This document shows, in pieces, positions 9,463 to 39,059 of a stretch of 64,000 nt of DNA. The stretch is from assembly GCF_014158035.1 (NCBI RefSeq), contig NZ_JACFXW010000001.1, forward strand, positions 186,001 to 250,000. Direction: 5' to 3'. Position 1 is the stretch's first letter; every line of letters starts with the position of its first letter. The stretch comes from Rhizobium sp. G21 (GTDB lineage: Bacteria > Pseudomonadota > Alphaproteobacteria > Rhizobiales > Rhizobiaceae). The translations under genes were made by a program, and so were the position numbers. Below the pieces are notes generated by a model, which saw only the letters and a program-made list of their open reading frames with translations, was not told where the DNA came from and made no database searches.

Positions 9463-10137
9463 ATGATAGGGCGTCGTCGCTTCACGTTGAGCTTGACCTT
9501 GTCCGTCTGCGGCCATGCGACTGTTGCCGGCTTGTTGTTCTTTGGCGCCCATCAGCCTCCAGCGCCTGCGCCCGCCCGTGAAATTTCGGTCTCGCTGGTC
9601 GAGATCACGCCAGGCGTCCCGAACCGAGGGCCAAAGCGAATGAAAGCTCCGCCGCCGGTGAAGGTATCCGAGCCGGACGATCGCTCCACTCGGCCCATTC
9701 CGAACATCGCGCCCTCCAGGGAGAGGTTGCGCCCCTTCAACTCTCTCCATACGGCGCAGCATCTATACGCCACGGACGTCTTGTCCCGCCCCGACAACAT
9801 CCGGGCTCGCAAGGCTTTGCGCAGTCTGGCGTCCGACGACAGACGGATTGAGCTGTGCAATATCGAAGCGATGGAGCAATTGCGCCGGACCGGTAGAATC
9901 TCCGCCGAACTGGTCGCGCCCTATGCCTTTCAGGATCTGGCGCTTCACGCAGCGGAAATCGTCGCCGACGGTGCGGCGGTCAAAGCCGGGAATCGTTGGT
10001 TCAGGCTGCGCTACCGATGCGTGGTCGCGCGGATGGCGCAAGCGCCGTCCGAATTCGCTTTCGCGCTCGGCGACGCCATTCCCGAATCGGAATGGAGCGA
10101 GCACTTCCTCTCCGCAGGCACCGCGATCGACGAATGA
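9463..10137 (+). CDS. DUF930 domain-containing protein
   Basis: A 224-residue protein of unknown role. An N-terminal membrane segment (about residues 8-28) is followed by a proline-rich linker, a layout reminiscent of TonB. The C-terminal half contains CNIEAMEQLRRTGRISAELV and ends near FALGDAIPESEWSEHFL, which resembles the DUF930 family of Hyphomicrobiales. The family usually has a conserved cysteine before the EAMEQ helix, present here. No strong ribosome site precedes the ATG, so the start is provisional. It is convergent with the giant gene downstream. Confidence 0.65.
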   Translation: MIGRRRFTLSLTLSVCGHATVAGLLFFGAHQPPAPAPAREISVSLVEITPGVPNRGPKRMKAPPPVKVSEPDDRSTRPIPNIAPSRERLRPFNSLHTAQHLYATDVLSRPDNIRARKALRSLASDDRRIELCNIEAMEQLRRTGRISAELVAPYAFQDLALHAAEIVADGAAVKAGNRWFRLRYRCVVARMAQAPSEFAFALGDAIPESEWSEHFLSAGTAIDE

Positions 10138-10197: not shown

Positions 10198-13100
10198 TTA
10201 CGAGAAGCGGCCCGCCGCATGCGCCAGCATGGTGTAGACCTTGCCGGTGTCGGAGGTGAGGTAGCTCTGCGTCAGGGTCTTGTCGCGATCGTTGCGGGCG
10301 ACATCGTTCAGCAGTTTCTCGAAATCGTCGATGTAGCGGTCGACGGCCGAGCGGAACTCCGGCTCGCGATCATATTTGCGTTTGATCTCGTCGAAGGTCT
10401 GCTGGCCCTTCAACGTGTAGAGCCGACGGGTGAACACGTCACGCTCGCCGCGGTGATAGCGACGCCAGAGATCGACCGAGGCTTCATGGTCGATGGCGCG
10501 GGCGATGTCGACCGACAACGAATTCAGTGATTCCACCACCTGCCGCGGATTGCGGTTTTCGACGCGCGAGGCGGCCGGGGGCGCGGTGCGGGTGTCGGCT
10601 TCCGCTTCGTCGCGGGAGGCGTTGCGCAGCAGATCGCTGATCCAGCCCTGGCCTTCTTCCCGACGCGCCGTCGGCTGGGCGGGAGCAGGGCGCTCCTCGC
10701 GCGGAGCCGAGGGACGATTGAGCGGATCGACACCGAGGCTGCCGCGCAGACCGAGCGGCTCGCGGGACGGCGCGGACACGCGGCTCTCCTGGCGCGGGGT
10801 CGAAGCGAGAGGGATCGACGGGCGCTCCGCCGCCGGTTGCGCTTCGGCGCGACGCGGCTCTATCGCCGGCTGGGGCCGGCTCGCTTGCGGGGTCGCCGGC
10901 TGACGCGCTTCGGTCGGGCGCTGTTGCGGCTGCGGCTGCGGCGGCGTCGCCATGCGCTGAGGCTCCGAACGCGCCGTTTCGATCGCCGCGGGCGGCTGGG
11001 CCGGGGCCGTTGCGCGGGGAGGAGCCTGATAGGCAGGCTGCGTGTCGACGCGGGCCGGCTGGTAGGCGACCGGCTGCGCTTCCACGCGCTGCGCCTGATA
11101 GACGGGTTGCGGCTCTACGCGCGGCGCGGGCTCCTGGCGGGCCGGACGCGGCGTTTCGAAATGCGATGCGGAGACGCCGATGATGCCGGTCAGCTCCTGC
11201 AGGGCGCGGACCTGTTCGGCCACGGCCTTGCGCATCTGGGCGGCGTTCTCCTTGGCTTCTTCCGGCAGGTCGAAGGCGCCGCGCTTGAGTTCGGCGCGGG
11301 TGTCGGTCAGTTCGCGGCGGATCTCGCCGGCGGTGCGGCGGATCTCGTCGGTGGCGCCGGCGAAGCGGTTGATCGAATCCTCGATCGCAGCCTGAAGCGC
11401 CTGGCGCATGTCTTCGGCGGTCGCCGTCGAGCGGGCGCCGGTTTCGCCGAGCATGCGGTCGACATCGGCGAGCGAGCCGGATACGGCGCCCCGCAATTTA
11501 CCGGCCACCTGATCGGCCTGTTCGCTGGCCTTTCCGAGCGCGGTCTCGACCGAACGGGCCGCTTCCTGCGCCGCGGCGCCGACGGTGCCGCGCAGCGCGT
11601 TGGCCATCTGGTCGGCGCGCTGTTCGGCTTCGCCGAGCACACGGCCGATATCGGCGAACGAGGTCTGGATGCCGGTGCGCACGGTGTTGGTCACCTGGCC
11701 GGCGCGGTTTTCGGCGCGGTCGAAGGCGGCTTCCACCAGACCGGACACCGAGCGCATGGTGTTCTCGATGTCTTCGGAGCGACGGACGAGGCCGACGGCC
11801 AGCGCCTGCAGCGCTTCCTCGCGTTCGGCGAGCGTCGACACCAGGTTGGACTGCGCCGCGCCCAGCAGGTTCGAGGCCTGGCCGAGCACCTTGGAGTGAT
11901 CGTCGAAGCGTCCCACCAGCGCGCCGATCTGACCGAGCGTGTCGTTGGAGACCGAGGAAAGCCTTTCGGCATTGCCTTCCAGCAGGCGCGCCGCCGCGTT
12001 GACCGAATCCGAGGCGCGGGTCGCGCTCTCGGTGAAGCGGTCGGCGGTGCCGGTCAGAGTCTCGTCGATCGCGCCGAGGTTGGCGGCGGCTTCGGCCACC
12101 AGTTGCTTGAGGCCGGCATTGCTCTGGCCGAGCGCGTCGATGAGGCCGAGGGCGGTGGAGCGCAGCGACTGCTCGCTGTCGCCGAGCGCGCGAGCGGCTT
12201 CCTGCGTGCGGCTGGAAATGGCGTCCACCAGCGCGGCGTTCTCGCCTCGCAGCAGGGCCGCGCCCTGTTCGGCGGCGCTGCGGATGTCTTCCGCTGCCGT
12301 CTGACCCAAGCTCTGCAGGCTCTCGGCCGCCGGCCGCGCCTTTTCCTCGATCAGGCGGTTGAGTTCGGCCGAGCGGGCGGCCAGCATGGAGTTCAGCTCG
12401 CGGGTGCGATCGTCGAGCGTCGTGCGGATCGCCTCGTTGCGGGCGGCCAGCGCCTGCTCCGCCGAGGTGAGGCTCTGGCTGATCGCGGCGCCGTCGTTCA
12501 TCACCTTCTGCTGCGCCGCGCCCACCTGTTCGGCGAACTGGCTGGCGTTGCGGGCGAAACTGCTGGTCAGCGAGTCGGTCTGCGTGGCGAGCTTGCCCGT
12601 GAAGGTTTCGGCTTCGCCGGCGATGCGGCCGGTGAAAGCCTCGGCGTCGTGGACGAGCTTGCTCGCGAAGCTTTCGGTCTCGGTCGCCAGCTTGCCGGTG
12701 AAGGCGTCGGCGCCGGAGGCGAGCTTGCCGGCATAGGCGTCGGCTTCCGACACCATCCGGTCCGAGAACCGATCCGCCTCGCTGGAGAGACGCGCGCTGA
12801 TGAGTTGCGCGTCACCGGTGAGCCGGGTGGCGAACTGATCGGCGTTGCTCTGCACGGTGCTGGCGAAGCTCTCGGCTTCTTCGGTGAGGCGGCTCGAGAA
12901 GCCGGCGCTGCGCGCGGCCATCTCGTCGGCATATTCGAAAGTCTTGCCGGAGATCTGGTCGATCGCCCGCCGCGCTTCGTCGTCCATCGATTGCGCGGCG
13001 TCGATGACGGCGGAACGGAGGGTGGAGGCGAGGCCGGACGCTTTGCCGTCTATGGTGCGCGACACGTTTTCGAGACCGATCGTCAGCGCGCGGTCCATCG

Positions 13101-16100
13101 TCTCCAGCCGTTCGTCGAGATGCGCCGTATGGCTTTCGAGCGTTTCGAGATCCGGCTCGCGCCGGTTTCGGTGACGCGGTCGAAGGACTGGATCTGCGTT
13201 TCGATCAACGAGCCCAGTTTCACGCCGGCTTCGTCGATGGTCTGGGCGAAGCGGCCGGCGTCGTCGCGGATGCCGGTCTCCAGGCGGTCGAAGCTGGTGA
13301 GGATGCGGCCGCCGGTCTCGTCGAAGCGGCTCGACACCGTCTCCAGCGCGCCGTCGATTCGCTGGCTGAAGGTTTCGGCGACATTGGCGATTTCCGCCGC
13401 TCTTTCGCCGAAGCGATCACTGAGAGCCTGCGTGGAGCGGTTCATCGACTGGTCGAGATCCTCGGAGGCCGTCGCGATCGCCTGCTTCAGCGCATTTTCG
13501 CGTTCTTCGAGCTTCATGTCCAGCATCATGATGTTGGACAGCATCGAGGCCGCGCCGCTTTCGAGCCGTTCGTCGATCGACACGGTCGAGGCTTCGATGG
13601 TTTCCTGCAGCGCCTGTCGATGGGCGGAAATCTGCGCCGACAGGCGCTCCGCCATTTCGTTGAGCGTCAGCGTGCTGTCGTTCAGCGTATCGCGGATGGC
13701 GCCATGGCTGAGTTCGACGCCGGCGTTCAGATTGGACAGGGCCGAGAGGAACTGGTCGTCGAGCGACTGCGCCACCCCTTCCACGGCGCGGATCATCGAG
13801 TCCTGCCGTTCGGCGAGACCGCTTTCCAGACGTTCGGTCGCGCCGGTCAGCGCCTGACGCAGAGAAGCTTCGCCCTGGCTCAGCGTGGCGTCGAGACGCT
13901 CGATATGGCCGAGCACGGCGTTGGAGCCGCGCTGGAAGCGCTTGTCCAGCGCTTCGCCGGACTGCTCGAGAGCCTGGATCAGAATCTCCTGCCGCAGCGA
14001 CAATTCGCCGTCGAGGCGGCTCGTCGAGACTTCGATCGCCTCGCGCATAGACTGTTCGCGCGCCTCCAGCGTCATGTCGAGCGACATGATGTTGGACAGC
14101 AGGTCCGTCGCGCCGCTGTCCATCTTTTCGCCGATGGTGCGCGCGGTGGCGTCGAGCGATTGCAGCAGGCTCTCCTGGCGCTGGGCGAGATCATGGTCCA
14201 GTCGACCCGTCGACTCCGCGATCGTTTGGCGAAGCTCAGCTTCGCGCTCGCCGAGCCTCGCGTCGAACTGATCCACGGAAGAGGAGATGGCCGCCGCGCC
14301 CGTGTCCAGCCGCTCGCCGATCGCGCGCGTCGTCGCGTCCAGCGTCTGCGCCAGGCCTTCCTGACGGCGGGCGAGATCGCCGTCCAGCCGGGCGGCGGAG
14401 GATTCGATCGCGTCGCGCAGCGAAGCTTCGCGGGCTTCGAGCGTCATGTCCACCGACATGATGTTGGAAAGAAGATCGGCCGCGCCGGTGTCGAGCCGTT
14501 CGCCGATCGCCCGCGACGTCGCATCGAGAGACTGGACGAAGGTTTCCTGGCGGCGGGCGAGATCGCTGTCGACGCGCTCCACCGAGTCGGAAATCGTCTG
14601 CGTCAACGCGATTTCGCGCGCGCCGAGTTTGGCGTCGAACTGGTCGATCGACGTCGCAATGGCCGAGACGCCGGCGTCGAGCCGGTCGTTGATTGTCCGC
14701 GACGTCGCGTCCAGCGACTGGACGAGGCTCTGCTGATGCAGGCCGAGCTCGCTTTCGAAGCGATTACTCGCCGCGGCCACGGCGTCGCGTAGAGCCGCCT
14801 CGCGCTCTTCGAGTTTCATGTCCAGCATCATGATGTTGGACAGCATGTTGGCCGCGCCGGTTTCCAGCCGTTCGTCGATCGAATGGGCGGAGGCGTCGAC
14901 CGTGTCGCGCAGAGCGTCGCGGTGCGACGCGATCTGGGCGATCAGCCGTTCGGCGGTTTCTTCGAGCGTCAGGCCGCTTTGGCCGAGCGTCTGGCGCAAA
15001 GCGTCATGGCTGCGCTCGACATCGGCGTTGAGCCCGCCCACGGTGGCGATCAGGCGCTCGTCGAGCGACTGGGCGAGATTTTCGATCGCGGTGGCGAGGC
15101 TCGCTTCGCGTTGCGCCAGCGTGTCTTCGATCTTACGGGCATTGGCGTTGAGCGCCATGGCGCTCGCCTGCATGCGGCTGTCGAGCGAATCCGCGGTCGC
15201 GTCCAGCACCTGGCGCAGGCTGCGCTCGCGCTCGGCGATCTTGTCGGAAAAGCTGCCGGCGCTGGATTCGAAATCGGTCGCGCTGCGGGACAGCGCATCC
15301 TTCAGCTGGCCGGTGGTCTGCTCCACCGACGAGGTCAGCGAATCGGTGGCGCCGTCCACCGCCGAGGTCAGTTTCTGGGTGGATTGCTCCACGACCTCGC
15401 GCAGACGGCTTTCGCCGTCCTCGAACGACATTTCCAGCATGCTCGCGCCCATGGCGATGCTGGCGCCGATTCCGGTGGCTTGTTCGTTGATGGTGTCGTC
15501 GAGCTGCTTGCGGCCTTCTTCCAGCGCGACGGTGATCGCGTTGGAGCGGTCTTCCAGCGTCTGGCGGATCAGGTCGTGGGTGGTGGCGAGCTGGATGCCG
15601 AGATCGGCGCCGCCGTTTTCAAGCGCTTCGGAGATGTCGCGCACGCCCTGTTCGATCGCGCCCTGCACGAAGCGGGCGCTTTCCTGGGACGAGGTCGCGA
15701 TGCGGTTCGCGCCGTCGCCGAGCGTCTGCTCGATTTCGCCCGTCAGCTCGCGCAGCGTCTCGTCGATCCGCTTCTGATGCTCGCCGTAGACGGCGGCGAT
15801 GGTGATGGCGTTTTCGCCGAGCGTCTTGGCGAGCCGCGAGCGGGCGTCTTCGGATGCGCCGGTGATCAGTTCGGAGCCGCGCGTCATTGCGGTGTCCAGA
15901 CGCTGCTGGTTGTCGGCGAGCGTCCGTTCGATCGCCTGACCCTTTTCGTCGAGCATGCGGGCCAGATGCTCCGGCGTCGAGCCGATGGCGTTTTCGATGC
16001 GGGCTCCGCCTTCGGCCAGCGACTTCTCCAGCCGTTCGCCGCCGGTGGCGACCGCGGTTTCGATGCGCGCGGCGCTGTCGGCCAGCGACCGTTCGAGGCT

Positions 16101-18133
16101 GGAGCCGCGTCCGTCGATCAGATCGGAGAGGCGGCGTTCGCCGTCGCCGATGGTCTCGGATATGGTTTTTCGGTCTTGTCGAAGGCGGAGATCAGCGCGC
16201 CCGAGCGTTCGGACAACAGCGCGCCGAGACGCTGCTCGCCGCCCGACAGCGTCTGGTCGAGCTTGCGATTGGTTTCGTCGAACGCCGCCGCAATTCCCGA
16301 CGAACGGTCGTCGAGCAGGCTCGACATGCGATCATGGCCGGTGGAGATGGCGGTTTCGATCGCCTGGGTGCGTTCGGCGATCTTCTGCGCCAGAGCGTCG
16401 GCGCGCGCGCCGAAGCCGCTGTCGAGTTCCTGATTGGCGCGGCCGATGACCTGGGTGATGTCGCCGACCTTGGCGTCGAGGGCGGTCTCGATGACCTCCT
16501 GGCCCGCGCCGAGCGCCGTCTCGATGGCCACGGCCTGCCCCATGAAGGATTGGGCGATCCGTTCGAGCGAGGATTCCAGCGTGCTGGACAGCGCGTCCTG
16601 GCCCTGGCCGAGCGCCTTGTTGATGCGGGTGAGGCTTTCGTTGAGCTTGGCGTCGAGCGAGCCGCTGCGTTTGTCGAAGGCGTCGGCGAATTCGCCGAGC
16701 CGGCCGTCGAAGGCCGACGACACCTGGTCGACCGAAGACTTGAGACGCTCGTCGAGGAAGGCGGTGCGGACGTCGAGATCCATGATCGCATCGTCGGCCG
16801 TCGTCTTGAGCGCCTGGCGGAAGCTCTGATTCTTCTGGTCCAGCGTCGCGTTCAGCGATTTCAGCATCGATTCCAGCGAATTGCTGATGACGCCGCCGCT
16901 GTTGGTCAGCGTCTCGTTGATCTGCCGGGTGCGGGCGATCAGCGTCTCGTTGAGCTGCCGGGTGCGGTCGGCGAGCGCCGCGTTCAATTTCTCCGTTGTG
17001 GCGTCCACCATCGAGGCGCGTGTCTCGAATTCGGACAACAGCTTGTTGCCGCGCTCGTTGATCGTCACGCCCAGCGTTTCGATGCGGGTGTCGAATTCCT
17101 CGGTCAGCGCCAGGCCGGAGGTTTCGAGCGCGCCGACCAGTTCTTCGGTCTTCTTGGACAGGACCGAGCCGATCGTATTGGCGACATTGCCGCTCTTCTG
17201 CATGATGATCGCGGCTTGGGTGTCGATCATCTGGGCGACGGCTTCGCCCGACGTGGCGATGTTCTTGGCGATGGTCAGGCTGGCGCTGGCGAGTTCGTCG
17301 CGGAGCAGGTCCTGTGCGCCGGTGATCGAGGACCGCACGCGCTCGGCATGGCCGATGATCGCCTCGCGCTCGCTGCCGAGTTCCTGCACCAGGCTGCGGA
17401 CGCGCAGTTCGTTGTCGCTGTAGCTGCGTTCGAGAGCGTTCACTTCGGAATGCACCAGCGTTTCGAGTTCGGAAGCGCGCGCGATCGTGCGCTCGATGCC
17501 CTCGTTCATGGCCGAGACTTCGCGACGCACAGCCTGGCCGACGGTCATGATGCGCTCGGCGGCGATGTTTTCCGGCTCGGCCAGTCTGAGGGCGACTTCG
17601 GCCATCGAGCGGGCGGCGTTCTTGAGTTCCTGCGCCCGCGCGATCATCGAGGCGAAGGCGAAGAAGATCATGATCGGGAAGAGGATGCCGATCAATGTCG
17701 CCAAGGCGCCCGGAATGGCGCCGAGATCGCGCAGAGACGAGATCTGCCAGATTTCCGGCGCGTAGAGAAAATGCGCGGCGACCAGCCCCAGAATGACCCA
17801 GAGCGCGGAAATGGCCGCGGCGATCCGCATGGGCGATTTCGAGCGCGGCGTGTCGAAGCCGCGGGTGAGGGCGGCCGAAGCCGTGGGAAGGGGATCGTTG
17901 GCGGGGCGGTGAGAGGGCGCTCTCGGCGCGGGCTCCGGGCCGAGCGAACGCGCATTGTCCGCCTTGCGCTGCTGCGCAGTCTTCCCGGTCTGGTTTGCAA
18001 CGTCGGACACACGGCTCTCCCGCTTTTGCGGCTGCGTTCCGGAATGGTCGTCCTGAAAGTCGATCGCCAGGGCCTCTTCCAACGCCCTGTAGGCGTTTTC
18101 CGACACGGCGTCGTTTTCGCTCTTAATCGTCAT
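10198..18133 (-). CDS. Giant coiled-coil membrane protein, growth pole ring (GPR/RgsE)-like; frame broken twice
   Basis: Three overlapping minus-strand frames (18133-16118, 15956-13083, 13098-10198) form one gene. Adding one base in T5 at 16166-16170 and one beside 13149 gives exactly 2,646 codons, 2,645 residues. Order: basic/Pro cytoplasmic N-terminus; two membrane helices at about 104-124 and 139-163; about 2,150 residues of amphipathic helix; nine tandem 62-residue repeats at about 1017-1574; eleven 11-residue repeats at about 1753-1873; a Pro/Gln-rich linker at about 2324-2491; a compact C-terminal domain of about 115 residues (SVDLWRRYHRGERDVFTRRL). This matches Agrobacterium GPR, a ~2,100-residue apolipoprotein-like protein forming a ring at the growing pole. 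The product is probably structural and required for polar growth. Assignment rests on architecture; no alignment was run. Confidence 0.8.
12517..12879 (-). repeat. Eleven consecutive 11-residue (33-bp) repeats in the GPR-like protein
   Basis: Reading from 12879 downward, the protein divides into eleven units of 11 residues, for example GADAFTGKLAT, ETESFASKLVH, DAEAFTGRIAG and EAETFTGKLAT. The pattern is acidic start, aromatic at position 5, basic at 8 and hydrophobic at 9. An 11-residue period is the hendecad of apolipoprotein A-type helices and gives a nearly straight amphipathic stripe. Confidence 0.8.
13413..15086 (-). repeat. Nine tandem 62-residue (186-bp) repeats in the GPR-like protein
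   Basis: Starting at 15086 and reading down, the translation divides without gaps into nine 62-residue units ending at 13413. Units begin IENLAQSLDERL, VDASAHSIDERL, LDATSRTINDRL, LDATSRAIGERL, LDATTRAIGERL, LDATARTIGEKM, LEQSGEALDKRF, VEGVAQSLDDQF and IEASTVSIDERL. Alternate units share LLSNIM or MLSNIM plus LDMKLEERE, so DNA words recur at 372 bp (14073, 14445, 14817) and 558 bp (13515 to 14073). 62 equals five hendecads plus one heptad. Confidence 0.88.
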
Positions 18134-18562
18134 TCCGAACTGCCTCGTTTTACTACCTCGCCGCGGCCGCTCCGAGCGGAAGCGAAACGTCGAGGCCCTG
18201 TATCCGATCCGGAGATTGTCGCATGCCGCGCCTCATGCGGCGATGGATGCGCTTCCCGGGACCGTCACTTTCGCGGCCGCTGGTTAAGGACGGCCTTTTT
18301 ACCCACGTTACGTAGTGGCACAGAAGCCGTTTTGATACAATCACTTGTGGGGAAGCTCCGCGCAAGGTTGAGGAGATATTAACGACAATTTTGCCGCGCC
18401 CGCTCAAAAAACCAAGCGTTTAGGCGCGTTTAGATATCGTTAACCATCTTTGCAGAATGCCTTCCCTGAAAACGCCCCAATTAAGCGTTCTTGCGTCCAT
18501 CGCTGCGACACTGCCGATCATAAGAAAACTCGCATGTGTCACAAACAAACAAGAACAGGGAA
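18134..18562. promoter_or_regulatory. Divergent GPR-like / Hpt promoter region with CtrA-like boxes
   Basis: This 429-bp intergenic region has no supportable gene. At 18429-18444 it contains TTTA-N7-TTAAC, one mismatch from the CtrA consensus TTAA-N7-TTAAC. A weaker TTAA-N7-TTTGC lies at 18379-18394. CtrA is the master cell-cycle regulator of this order, and both flanking genes are plausible cell-cycle functions. Binding is inferred from the motif only. Confidence 0.4.
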
Positions 18563-18937
18563 ATGAACATGGCAGCCGCATCCGTCGCCTTCGAAGCCCC
18601 CGACAACTACGCCTCCGTCGCGCCTTCGCGGGCTCGCCCCATCGATCTCGTCCATCTGGCGCGCCAGACGTCGGGCGACAAGAACCTCGAGCTCGAAGTC
18701 CTCAACATCTTCGCCCGCCAGGCGCGTAACTGCATGGCGGAACTGTCGTCGTCGGCAAACGACAATCGCTCGGCCATCGCGCACCGCCTCAAGGGCGCCG
18801 CGCTCGCCATCGGCGCCTTCAGCGTCTCCACCGTCGCCGAGAAGGTCGAACATGACGCCGACGACGCCGCGGCGCTCGCCATGCTCGGCGCAGCCGTCAT
18901 CGAAGCCGAAAATTTCATTCTCAAGCTGTCGCGTTGA
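18563..18937 (+). CDS. Hpt (histidine phosphotransfer) domain protein
   Basis: Small stand-alone phosphotransfer protein of 124 residues, expected to relay phosphate between a hybrid kinase and a response regulator. The phospho-accepting histidine is H74 in AHRLKGAALAIGA, the H-x-L-K-G core of Hpt domains. The following ALAIGAFSVSTVAEKVEHDA forms the expected helix with a small-residue face. The ATG at 18563 follows CAGGGAA; an in-frame GTG at 18536 is weaker. No kinase or receiver gene is adjacent, so partners are unknown. Its divergent placement from the GPR-like gene suggests a cell-cycle link, which is inference. Confidence 0.82.
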   Translation: MNMAAASVAFEAPDNYASVAPSRARPIDLVHLARQTSGDKNLELEVLNIFARQARNCMAELSSSANDNRSAIAHRLKGAALAIGAFSVSTVAEKVEHDADDAAALAMLGAAVIEAENFILKLSR

Positions 18938-19365: not shown

Positions 19366-19403
19366 AAAAAAATGCCTCGCTCGACGGTGAAGGCGAGCGA
19401 GGC
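19366..19403 (-). terminator. Intrinsic terminator, minus strand
   Basis: The hairpin at 19374-19403 has an 8-9 bp GC-rich stem and, read on the minus strand, is followed by seven T residues. It also lies 27 bp after the ferredoxin stop on the plus strand, but there no T run follows, so it is directional to the minus strand. Confidence 0.7.
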
Positions 19404-19530
19404 AAGTAAGACGCATCGTCAAACAGGCGAGGGAGGAGACACCTGTTGCCACTCCAATGCGTCGGGGAAACCACACATGACACCGTAAGGAAGGCTGCTC
19501 TACGCTGCGACCGCTTCGACCTGTTCAGTG
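19366..19530 (-). ncRNA. Candidate small RNA ending in an intrinsic terminator
   Basis: On the minus strand a stem GCCTCGCT/AGCGAGGC (19374-19403) is followed by a run of T (19366-19372), a typical intrinsic terminator. No supportable minus-strand CDS ends between it and the DUF922 gene, whose stop is 273 bp upstream. The intervening DNA contains a plausible promoter-like TTGAAC with an AT-rich stretch around 19535-19565. Either an sRNA of about 150 nt or a long 3' trailer of the DUF922 gene would explain it. Boundaries are approximate. Confidence 0.3.
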
Positions 19531-38705: not shown

Positions 38706-38822
38706 CTCAACGCGCCGATCCGAAAGCGGTTCCCCGTCGCCGCACCGTGGATCGTTGGTCCCGTGCAGCCTTGATCTCTCGCCGTGGCGGCGCTACATCT
38801 GCCGCGCCGGGCGACCGGCGAC

Positions 38823-38957
38823 GTTCTCAGGGCGGGGTGAAATTCCCCACCGGCGGTAAAGGAGAAATCCAAGCCCGCGAGCGGCCTCTGTCAAAAGGAG
38901 GCGTCAGCAGATCTGGCGCAATTCCAGAGCCGACGGTCACAGTCCGGATGAAAGAGA
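38823..38957 (+). promoter_or_regulatory. FMN riboswitch (RFN element)
   Basis: The canonical RFN sequence blocks appear in order: TTCTCAGGGCGGGGTGAAAT, then CCCCACCGGCGGTAAAGG, AGCCCGCGAGCG, GTCAGCAGATCTGG, CAATTCCAGAGCCGACGG and TCACAGTCCGGATGAAAGAG. It ends 102 bp before the ribN start. FMN binding would reduce expression of the downstream gene. The spacer contains GCGCA/TGCGC complementary segments that could form the expression platform. Confidence 0.97.
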
Positions 38958-39059
38958 GCGGGTTTGACAATGGCTGCCGGGAACGCGCTCTGCGCATCTG
39001 CGGTGAAATTGCGCATCCTCGTGCGCCCTGATTTGTGTTGGCCCCGATGGGATAGGAAC

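What the first reader, a model, noticed from the sequence alone, without database searches (positions are those of the whole stretch)
10198..18133. Giant GPR/RgsE-like polar-growth protein, larger than the described Agrobacterium protein
Seen: three overlapping minus-strand frames become one 2,645-residue protein when two single bases are restored, and the total is then exactly divisible by three. Architecture (two N-terminal membrane helices, about 2,000 residues of helical repeats, a Pro-rich linker and a compact C-terminal domain) matches Agrobacterium growth pole ring protein, which has about 2,100 residues. This version appears several hundred residues longer. Inference: it scaffolds the growing pole, and repeat number sets its span. 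Copy-number differences between species could tune ring size.
Basis: partly seen in the sequence, partly recalled or inferred. Interest (0 to 1): 0.75.

Follow-up and report, generated by a model that had tools for sequence, protein, structure and literature searches.

The report
Long GPR/RgsE polar-growth rod protein
This is a Rhizobium-like bacterium's copy of a known giant scaffold protein of the growing cell tip; it most likely looks split only because this genome sequence holds many small errors, and its long rod has changed length over evolution almost only in steps that keep the helix in phase (multiples of eleven residues, or such a multiple plus seven).

Summary
Window 10198-18133 (minus) carries three overlapping open frames that align end to end with one uninterrupted frame in the two closest relatives (2,666 and 2,668 codons stop to stop; 85-96% identity). 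The two frame changes are best read as sequence error: 18 of 66 genes intact in both relatives are broken in this genome, against 2 of 52 and 3 of 52 the other way. The protein is an ortholog of Agrobacterium GPR / Sinorhizobium RgsE: membrane hairpin, about 2,100 helical residues, Pro-rich linker, a 111-residue C-terminal domain, conserved neighbours. At about 2,645 residues it is long but not exceptional (78 relatives: 1,784-2,956 codons). Not found in print in the searches made: the rod is a nearly untwisted eleven-residue (hendecad) repeat with a narrow hydrophobic stripe, and 43 of 45 rod indels between close relatives are 11n or 11n+7 residues, against 8 of 68 in the linker. The C-terminal domain occurs in 284 of 297 genomes of the order; the window copy matches no Pfam model and its model found no PDB fold. 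Unit number drifts while helical phase is kept, which speaks against a precise ring-size ruler.

The parts
10198..18133 (-). gpr/rgsE ortholog, about 2,645 residues, read in three frames in this assembly
16121..18133 (-). first piece: start, membrane hairpin, first part of the helical rod (671 residues as it stands)
17630..17836 (-). two hydrophobic membrane helices (residues about 100-126 and 136-168)
13086..16331 (-). second piece: middle of the helical rod, with a stretch that repeats every 62 residues (up to 60% identity)
10201..13416 (-). third piece: end of the rod, linker, C-terminal domain
12586..12744 (-). tandem array of 33-bp units (4.8 copies, 66% matches), the DNA form of the 11-residue repeat
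10534..11151 (-). Pro/Gln-rich linker with a short GWISDLL motif that begins at 10647
10201..10533 (-). 111-residue all-helical C-terminal domain, widespread in Alphaproteobacteria

Best explanation
It is the GPR/RgsE growth-pole scaffold of a Rhizobium-like bacterium, one gene that sequence error has split into three frames. A membrane hairpin anchors it in the inner membrane. About 2,100 residues of hendecad helix then form a nearly untwisted rod that self-associates along one narrow hydrophobic stripe. A Pro-rich tether ends in a conserved helical domain that most likely docks partners of the polar growth machinery. Shown here: orthology, the error background, the periodicity, the stripe, the phase-kept indels and the spread of the C-terminal domain. 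Known from papers for the relatives: growth-pole localisation, the hexameric ring in Agrobacterium, RgsE interaction with RgsA, RgsS and TolQ in a two-hybrid test. Inferred: that the rod self-associates by this stripe, and that the C-terminal domain is the docking part.
For: End-to-end alignment to intact orthologs. Same neighbours: Hpt gene in 78 of 79 loci, ferredoxin 75 of 79, DUF922 72 of 79, including named Agrobacterium and Sinorhizobium loci. C-terminal domain 88-98% identical to the window copy in the other 24 sequences aligned, which were 24 of the 79 loci held. Error background 18/66 against 2/52 and 3/52; Fisher p 4.8e-5 for 18/66 against the pooled 5/104. Hydrophobic period peak at 3.66 in 6 of 6 relatives tested, power 58-101 there against 2.8-4.7 at the heptad value 3.5; mean period after phase drift 3.643-3.649 in 4 relatives. 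In those 4, 51-62% of 33-residue windows beat the 99th percentile of shuffles for the eleven-residue stripe. Stripe 90% ILVMF at its centre, 51-60% at 30 degrees, 19% or less from 60 degrees on, pooled over 10 relatives. Rod indels in 29 close pairs: 35 of 45 multiples of 11, 8 more 11n+7; linker 1 of 68 and 7 of 68. Simulated random deletions recovered exactly in 444 of 444 cases, so the alignment does not create this.
Against: Atu1348 and SMc00190 themselves were not held; orthology rests on other Agrobacterium and Sinorhizobium loci. Reads were not seen, so a true double frameshift in this strain is not excluded. The rod model has low confidence (mean pLDDT 68.8, pTM 0.20, 3 sequences). Oligomeric state is untested. 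A local stripe test on L007 did not separate 11/3 from 18/5 (93% and 95% at the centre; heptad 81%). Pfam files the region as apolipoprotein, and the published view favours a lipid role. No MreB match over the cut-off was found in this genome (0 of 1; four weaker matches), as expected of a polar grower, but in an 86%-complete genome with many broken genes that says little.
Confidence: 0.85

Rival explanations
1. The helical region is an apolipoprotein-like lipid-binding surface: GPR sorts or holds lipids at the growth pole, as Zupan et al. 2021 consider.
For: PF01442 matches all three pieces (E 1.5e-15, 1.5e-32, 2e-24; only the middle one over the curated cut-off). An 11/22-residue periodicity is a known trait of apolipoproteins (recalled). 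PMC8262873 (abstract and passages) reports modelled similarity of two domains to apoA-IV and supports a role as organising centre for membrane synthesis.
Against: The stripe is narrow; tryptophan 0.0%, Phe 1.8%, Tyr 0.2%; basic residues lie mainly on one flank while acidic ones fill the rest of the polar face; net charge -5.8 per 100. PF01442 also rings below its cut-off in 7 of 14 control genomes, so the match may reflect periodicity alone. The comparison with true apolipoprotein faces is recalled, not computed.
Confidence: 0.2
2. The three frames are real: this strain has a decayed or split gpr.
For: The window sequence as held reads in three frames.
Against: 18 of 66 genes (27%) intact in both close relatives are broken in this genome. 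The frame sets listed there imply about 18 frame changes in 25,561 codons, so about two in a gene this long. The genome scores 86% complete in 5 contigs while G003 and G008, which match the two close relatives, score 98 and 99. All three pieces keep 85-96% protein identity.
Confidence: 0.06
3. Repeat number is a ruler that sets ring diameter, so species tune ring size by copy number.
For: Rod length does vary by whole units, from 1,324 to 2,367 residues in 78 relatives.
Against: Length changes between near-identical proteins and open frames differ by 382 codons inside one genus, not the pattern expected of a precise ruler. A fully extended 2,100-residue helix (about 315 nm at 0.15 nm per residue, my arithmetic) is longer than the published 200-nm ring is wide. 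No ring sizes from other species turned up in the papers seen; no search was made for that alone.
Confidence: 0.07

Closest known systems
Agrobacterium tumefaciens GPR (Atu1348; 2,115 aa; PMC8262873)
   Same: Two N-terminal membrane helices, long helical PF01442-type region, Pro-rich region, essential C terminus; the locus of A. tumefaciens MEJ076 (L031) shares gene neighbours and the 111-residue end
   Different: About 530 residues longer; the two closest relatives of the window show a 62-residue higher-order repeat where MEJ076 shows 22
Sinorhizobium meliloti RgsE (SMc00190; 2,089 aa; PMC7327166)
   [quoted passage not shown] a S. fredii locus (L077) shares neighbours and the C-terminal domain
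   Different: About 556 residues longer
Scy / FilP of Streptomyces (PMC9858780)
   Same: Works-like: long, mostly hendecad rod of a polar-growth scaffold
   Different: Lacks the DivIVA-like GYDxxEVD motif (0 of 3 pieces, 0 of 78 relatives); Scy model match only E 1.7e-4, 19.2 bits against a cut-off of 1040; has a membrane hairpin and another C-terminal domain
Caulobacter TipN
   Same: Polar landmark protein; one paper passage calls GPR similar to TipN (PMC8546619), another analogous (PMC13170164)
   Different: 882 aa in that passage; relation not tested here

Membership tests
GPR/RgsE | Two N-terminal transmembrane helices | tested here: met
   hydropathy, residues about 100-126 and 136-168
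GPR/RgsE | Long Pro-poor helical region matching PF01442 | tested here: met
   all three pieces match; the middle one is over the curated cut-off (113.3 against 90 bits), the other two are under it (57.8, 86.8)
GPR/RgsE | Pro-rich low-complexity linker before the C terminus | tested here: met
   10534-11151
GPR/RgsE | Conserved C-terminal domain shared with Agrobacterium and Sinorhizobium copies | tested here: met
   89% (L031) and 91% (L077) identical to the window copy
GPR/RgsE | Conserved gene neighbourhood | tested here: met
   Hpt 78/79, ferredoxin 75/79, DUF922 72/79 loci
GPR/RgsE | Direct alignment to Atu1348 / SMc00190 | not testable with these tools
   neither sequence was among the loci held
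GPR/RgsE | Growth-pole localisation and growth defect on loss | not testable with these tools
   bench work
Apolipoprotein A1/A4/E (as lipid binder) | Wide non-polar face with basic residues on both edges (recalled) | tested here: not met
   narrow stripe, basic residues mainly on one flank; no true apolipoprotein was run alongside
DivIVA/FilP/Scy | GYDxxEVD motif | tested here: not met
   0 of 3 pieces and 0 of 78 relatives
DivIVA/FilP/Scy | Extended hendecad rod | tested here: met
   a property of the rod, not proof of kinship

The most novel reading that the evidence does not exclude
GPR is not a lipid-carrying apolipoprotein but a nearly untwisted hendecad rod, a counterpart in Rhizobiales of the Streptomyces Scy rod reached independently. 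Selection holds its helical phase (about 3.645 residues per turn) while letting the number of units drift, and it is capped by a so far unnamed C-terminal domain that, in the genomes searched, was found only in Alphaproteobacteria.
Probability: 0.5. Interest if true: 0.55.

Novelty: new member of a known kind. Interest (0 to 1): 0.4.

Why it matters
Polar growth in most Rhizobiales works without MreB (PMC7327166, passage), and GPR is a leading candidate for its scaffold, yet no solved structure turned up for the rod or the C-terminal domain. A hendecad reading gives testable predictions: a straight bundle, phase-breaking changes harmful, whole-unit changes tolerated. It offers another explanation for the apolipoprotein label. 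The C-terminal domain gives an order-wide handle for finding and naming these proteins.

Tried and rejected
Heptad coiled coil: power at period 3.5 is 2.8-4.7 against 58-101 at 3.66 in 6 of 6 relatives. NCBIfam matches to ZorA, SMC-like coils and Scy are all far below their cut-offs and taken as coil similarity. PDB sequence searches gave nothing convincing: for the C-terminal profile 3 weak hits, best E 0.32; for the rod 0 at E 0.1. Foldseek with the C-terminal model gave 76 matches at E 10 or better, 0 at 0.001, best 2.4. A first frameshift count was confounded by antisense frames in GC-rich DNA (20.8-43.5% broken in every direction) and was replaced by the three-way test; there 66 of 111 genes had a homolog in the stretch fetched, and 4 of the 18 broken ones show only an in-frame stop, which may partly be alignment ends. 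A first indel count lost 43 of 78 proteins for want of an anchor and was replaced, which put 76 of 78 proteins into 38 pairs, each protein used once. The 9 more distant pairs gave 65 rod gaps: 45 multiples of 11, 8 of 11n+7 and 12 others; their linkers gave 2 and 3 of 61. Two linker gaps of 110 and 113 come from my rod-end rule. Inserted segments of 7 or more residues: 16 of 44 are at least 70% identical to a neighbour, 13 of 44 under 45%, so recent tandem copying explains only part. NCBIfam scans of six distant relatives gave no name for them. TipN kinship was not tested. Literature: a search joining the growth pole ring with hendecad or 11-residue terms gave 30 papers holding two of the terms, 10 listed, none of those 10 holding 'growth pole ring'; one joining hendecad, indel and length-variation terms gave 161, 10 listed, none on GPR by title. 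So absence from print is only weakly supported. The 2019 GPR paper is not held. That RgsE length varies was known in practice: Krol et al. widened their size filter to 50% for it (PMC7327166, passage).
Full report
Observation. The three minus-strand frames are in the sequence. Without joining them, each was aligned to the single open frame of the two nearest relatives, Rhizobium sp. SG_E_25_P2 (L006) and FKL33 (L007). They tile those proteins in order at 85-96% identity.

Why it is split. The window lies in a 4.29-Mb contig of a 5-contig genome scored 86% complete. I took genes intact in two of three genomes and asked whether the third breaks them: 18 of 66 in this genome, 2 of 52 in G008 and 3 of 52 in G003. 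Fisher p is 4.8e-5 for 18/66 against the pooled 5/104. The frame sets imply about 18 changes in 25,561 codons, so about two in a gene this size. The 8 other genomes of the genus that were searched read the matched parts of the gene in one frame with no stop inside. Sequence error is the ordinary explanation; without reads it is not proven.

What it is. Two hydrophobic helices, a Pro-poor helical region, a Pro-rich linker and a C-terminal domain match the published GPR and RgsE (2,115 and 2,089 residues; PMC8262873, outline with abstract and passages; PMC7327166, passages). The divergent Hpt gene, ferredoxin and DUF922 genes accompany it in 78, 75 and 72 of 79 loci. The C-terminal domain is 111 residues long in all 78 relatives with a full frame; the 79th locus, L067, did not give a full frame.

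Length. Open frames in those 78 relatives run from 1,784 to 2,956 codons, median 2,236.5, stop to stop; three reach 2,666. Inside the genus the range is 2,286-2,668. The window protein is long, not extraordinary. About 87% of the length variance goes with the rod (covariance share).

The rod. Hydrophobic residues recur with a period of 3.66 and hardly any heptad signal in 6 of 6 relatives. Allowing for phase drift, the mean period in 4 relatives is 3.643-3.649 residues per turn (the script prints both signs of the drift, and the sign follows from its definition). That is close to the 3.63 of an undistorted helix given in PMC9858780 (passages), so little supercoil is expected. The eleven-residue stripe beats the 99th percentile of shuffles in 51-62% of windows, so it is strong but not everywhere. 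Pooled over 10 relatives the stripe is narrow, basic residues lie mainly on one flank and acidic ones over the rest of the polar face, tryptophan is 0.0% and proline 0.2%. In 29 close pairs, 35 of 45 rod indels are multiples of 11 residues and 8 more are 11n+7, which turns the stripe by only 33 degrees; the two others are 3 and 58. The linker in the same pairs gives 1 and 7 of 68. Random deletions of 1-100 residues put into the same rods were recovered exactly in 444 of 444 simulations at 5-17% divergence. The window DNA itself holds a 33-bp tandem array. Selection for phase and copying between repeats may both contribute; these were not separated. The fold of a 500-residue rod piece shows two long helices at low confidence.

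The C-terminal domain. It is found in 131 of 385 genomes of the class with a narrow profile and in 284 of 297 of the order with a wider one. In a draw of 398 genomes of the phylum all 106 matched genomes are of the same class; how many of the 398 lie outside the class is not shown, and nothing outside the phylum was searched. In the 27 distant relatives whose ends were read it closes the protein or nearly so. The window copy has no Pfam match at E 0.1; the best match among 35 members is E 0.0009. The model is all-helical (mean pLDDT 81.7, pTM 0.75) with no PDB match at E 0.001.

How it most likely works. Anchored by its hairpin, the protein projects a straight hendecad rod into the cytoplasm, bundles through its stripe, and presents the C-terminal domain on a flexible tether to partners. 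Published work gives a hexameric 200-nm ring in Agrobacterium; deleting 221 or 332 C-terminal residues strongly blocks complementation, while paired foci still form without the last 332 (PMC8262873, passages), which fits a docking rather than an assembly role. RgsE interacts with RgsA, RgsS and TolQ in a two-hybrid test in Sinorhizobium work (PMC7327166, passages). Bundling and docking are inference. The lipid-binding view remains open and should be tested directly. The published coiled-coil predictions in GPR cover 21-residue stretches (PMC8262873 abstract); programs built for heptads might miss hendecads, which is my suggestion, not a test.

Ruler. The data show unit-wise drift, which speaks against a precise ruler but does not exclude a loose effect on ring size.

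Noticed in passing
18536-18937 (+): Small Hpt-domain protein with an HRLKG motif, divergent from gpr and kept beside it in 78 of 79 loci; a possible phosphorelay link to polar growth.
   Followed up: partly
19369-19523 (-): Match to Rfam Atu_C7 sRNA, 67.2 bits against a gathering score of 45.
   Followed up: no
38819-38963 (+): FMN riboswitch, 117.5 bits.
   Followed up: no
9463-10137 (+): TonB-like protein with DUF930 just downstream of gpr, found near it in only 2 of 79 loci.
   Followed up: no
L062: Xaviernesmea oryzae has the longest copy among the 78 relatives, 2,956 codons stop to stop.
   Followed up: no
genome G000, C1:190000-290000 or so: Widespread gene breakage in this assembly (18 of 66 genes tested); other split genes in the window should be read with care.
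   Followed up: yes
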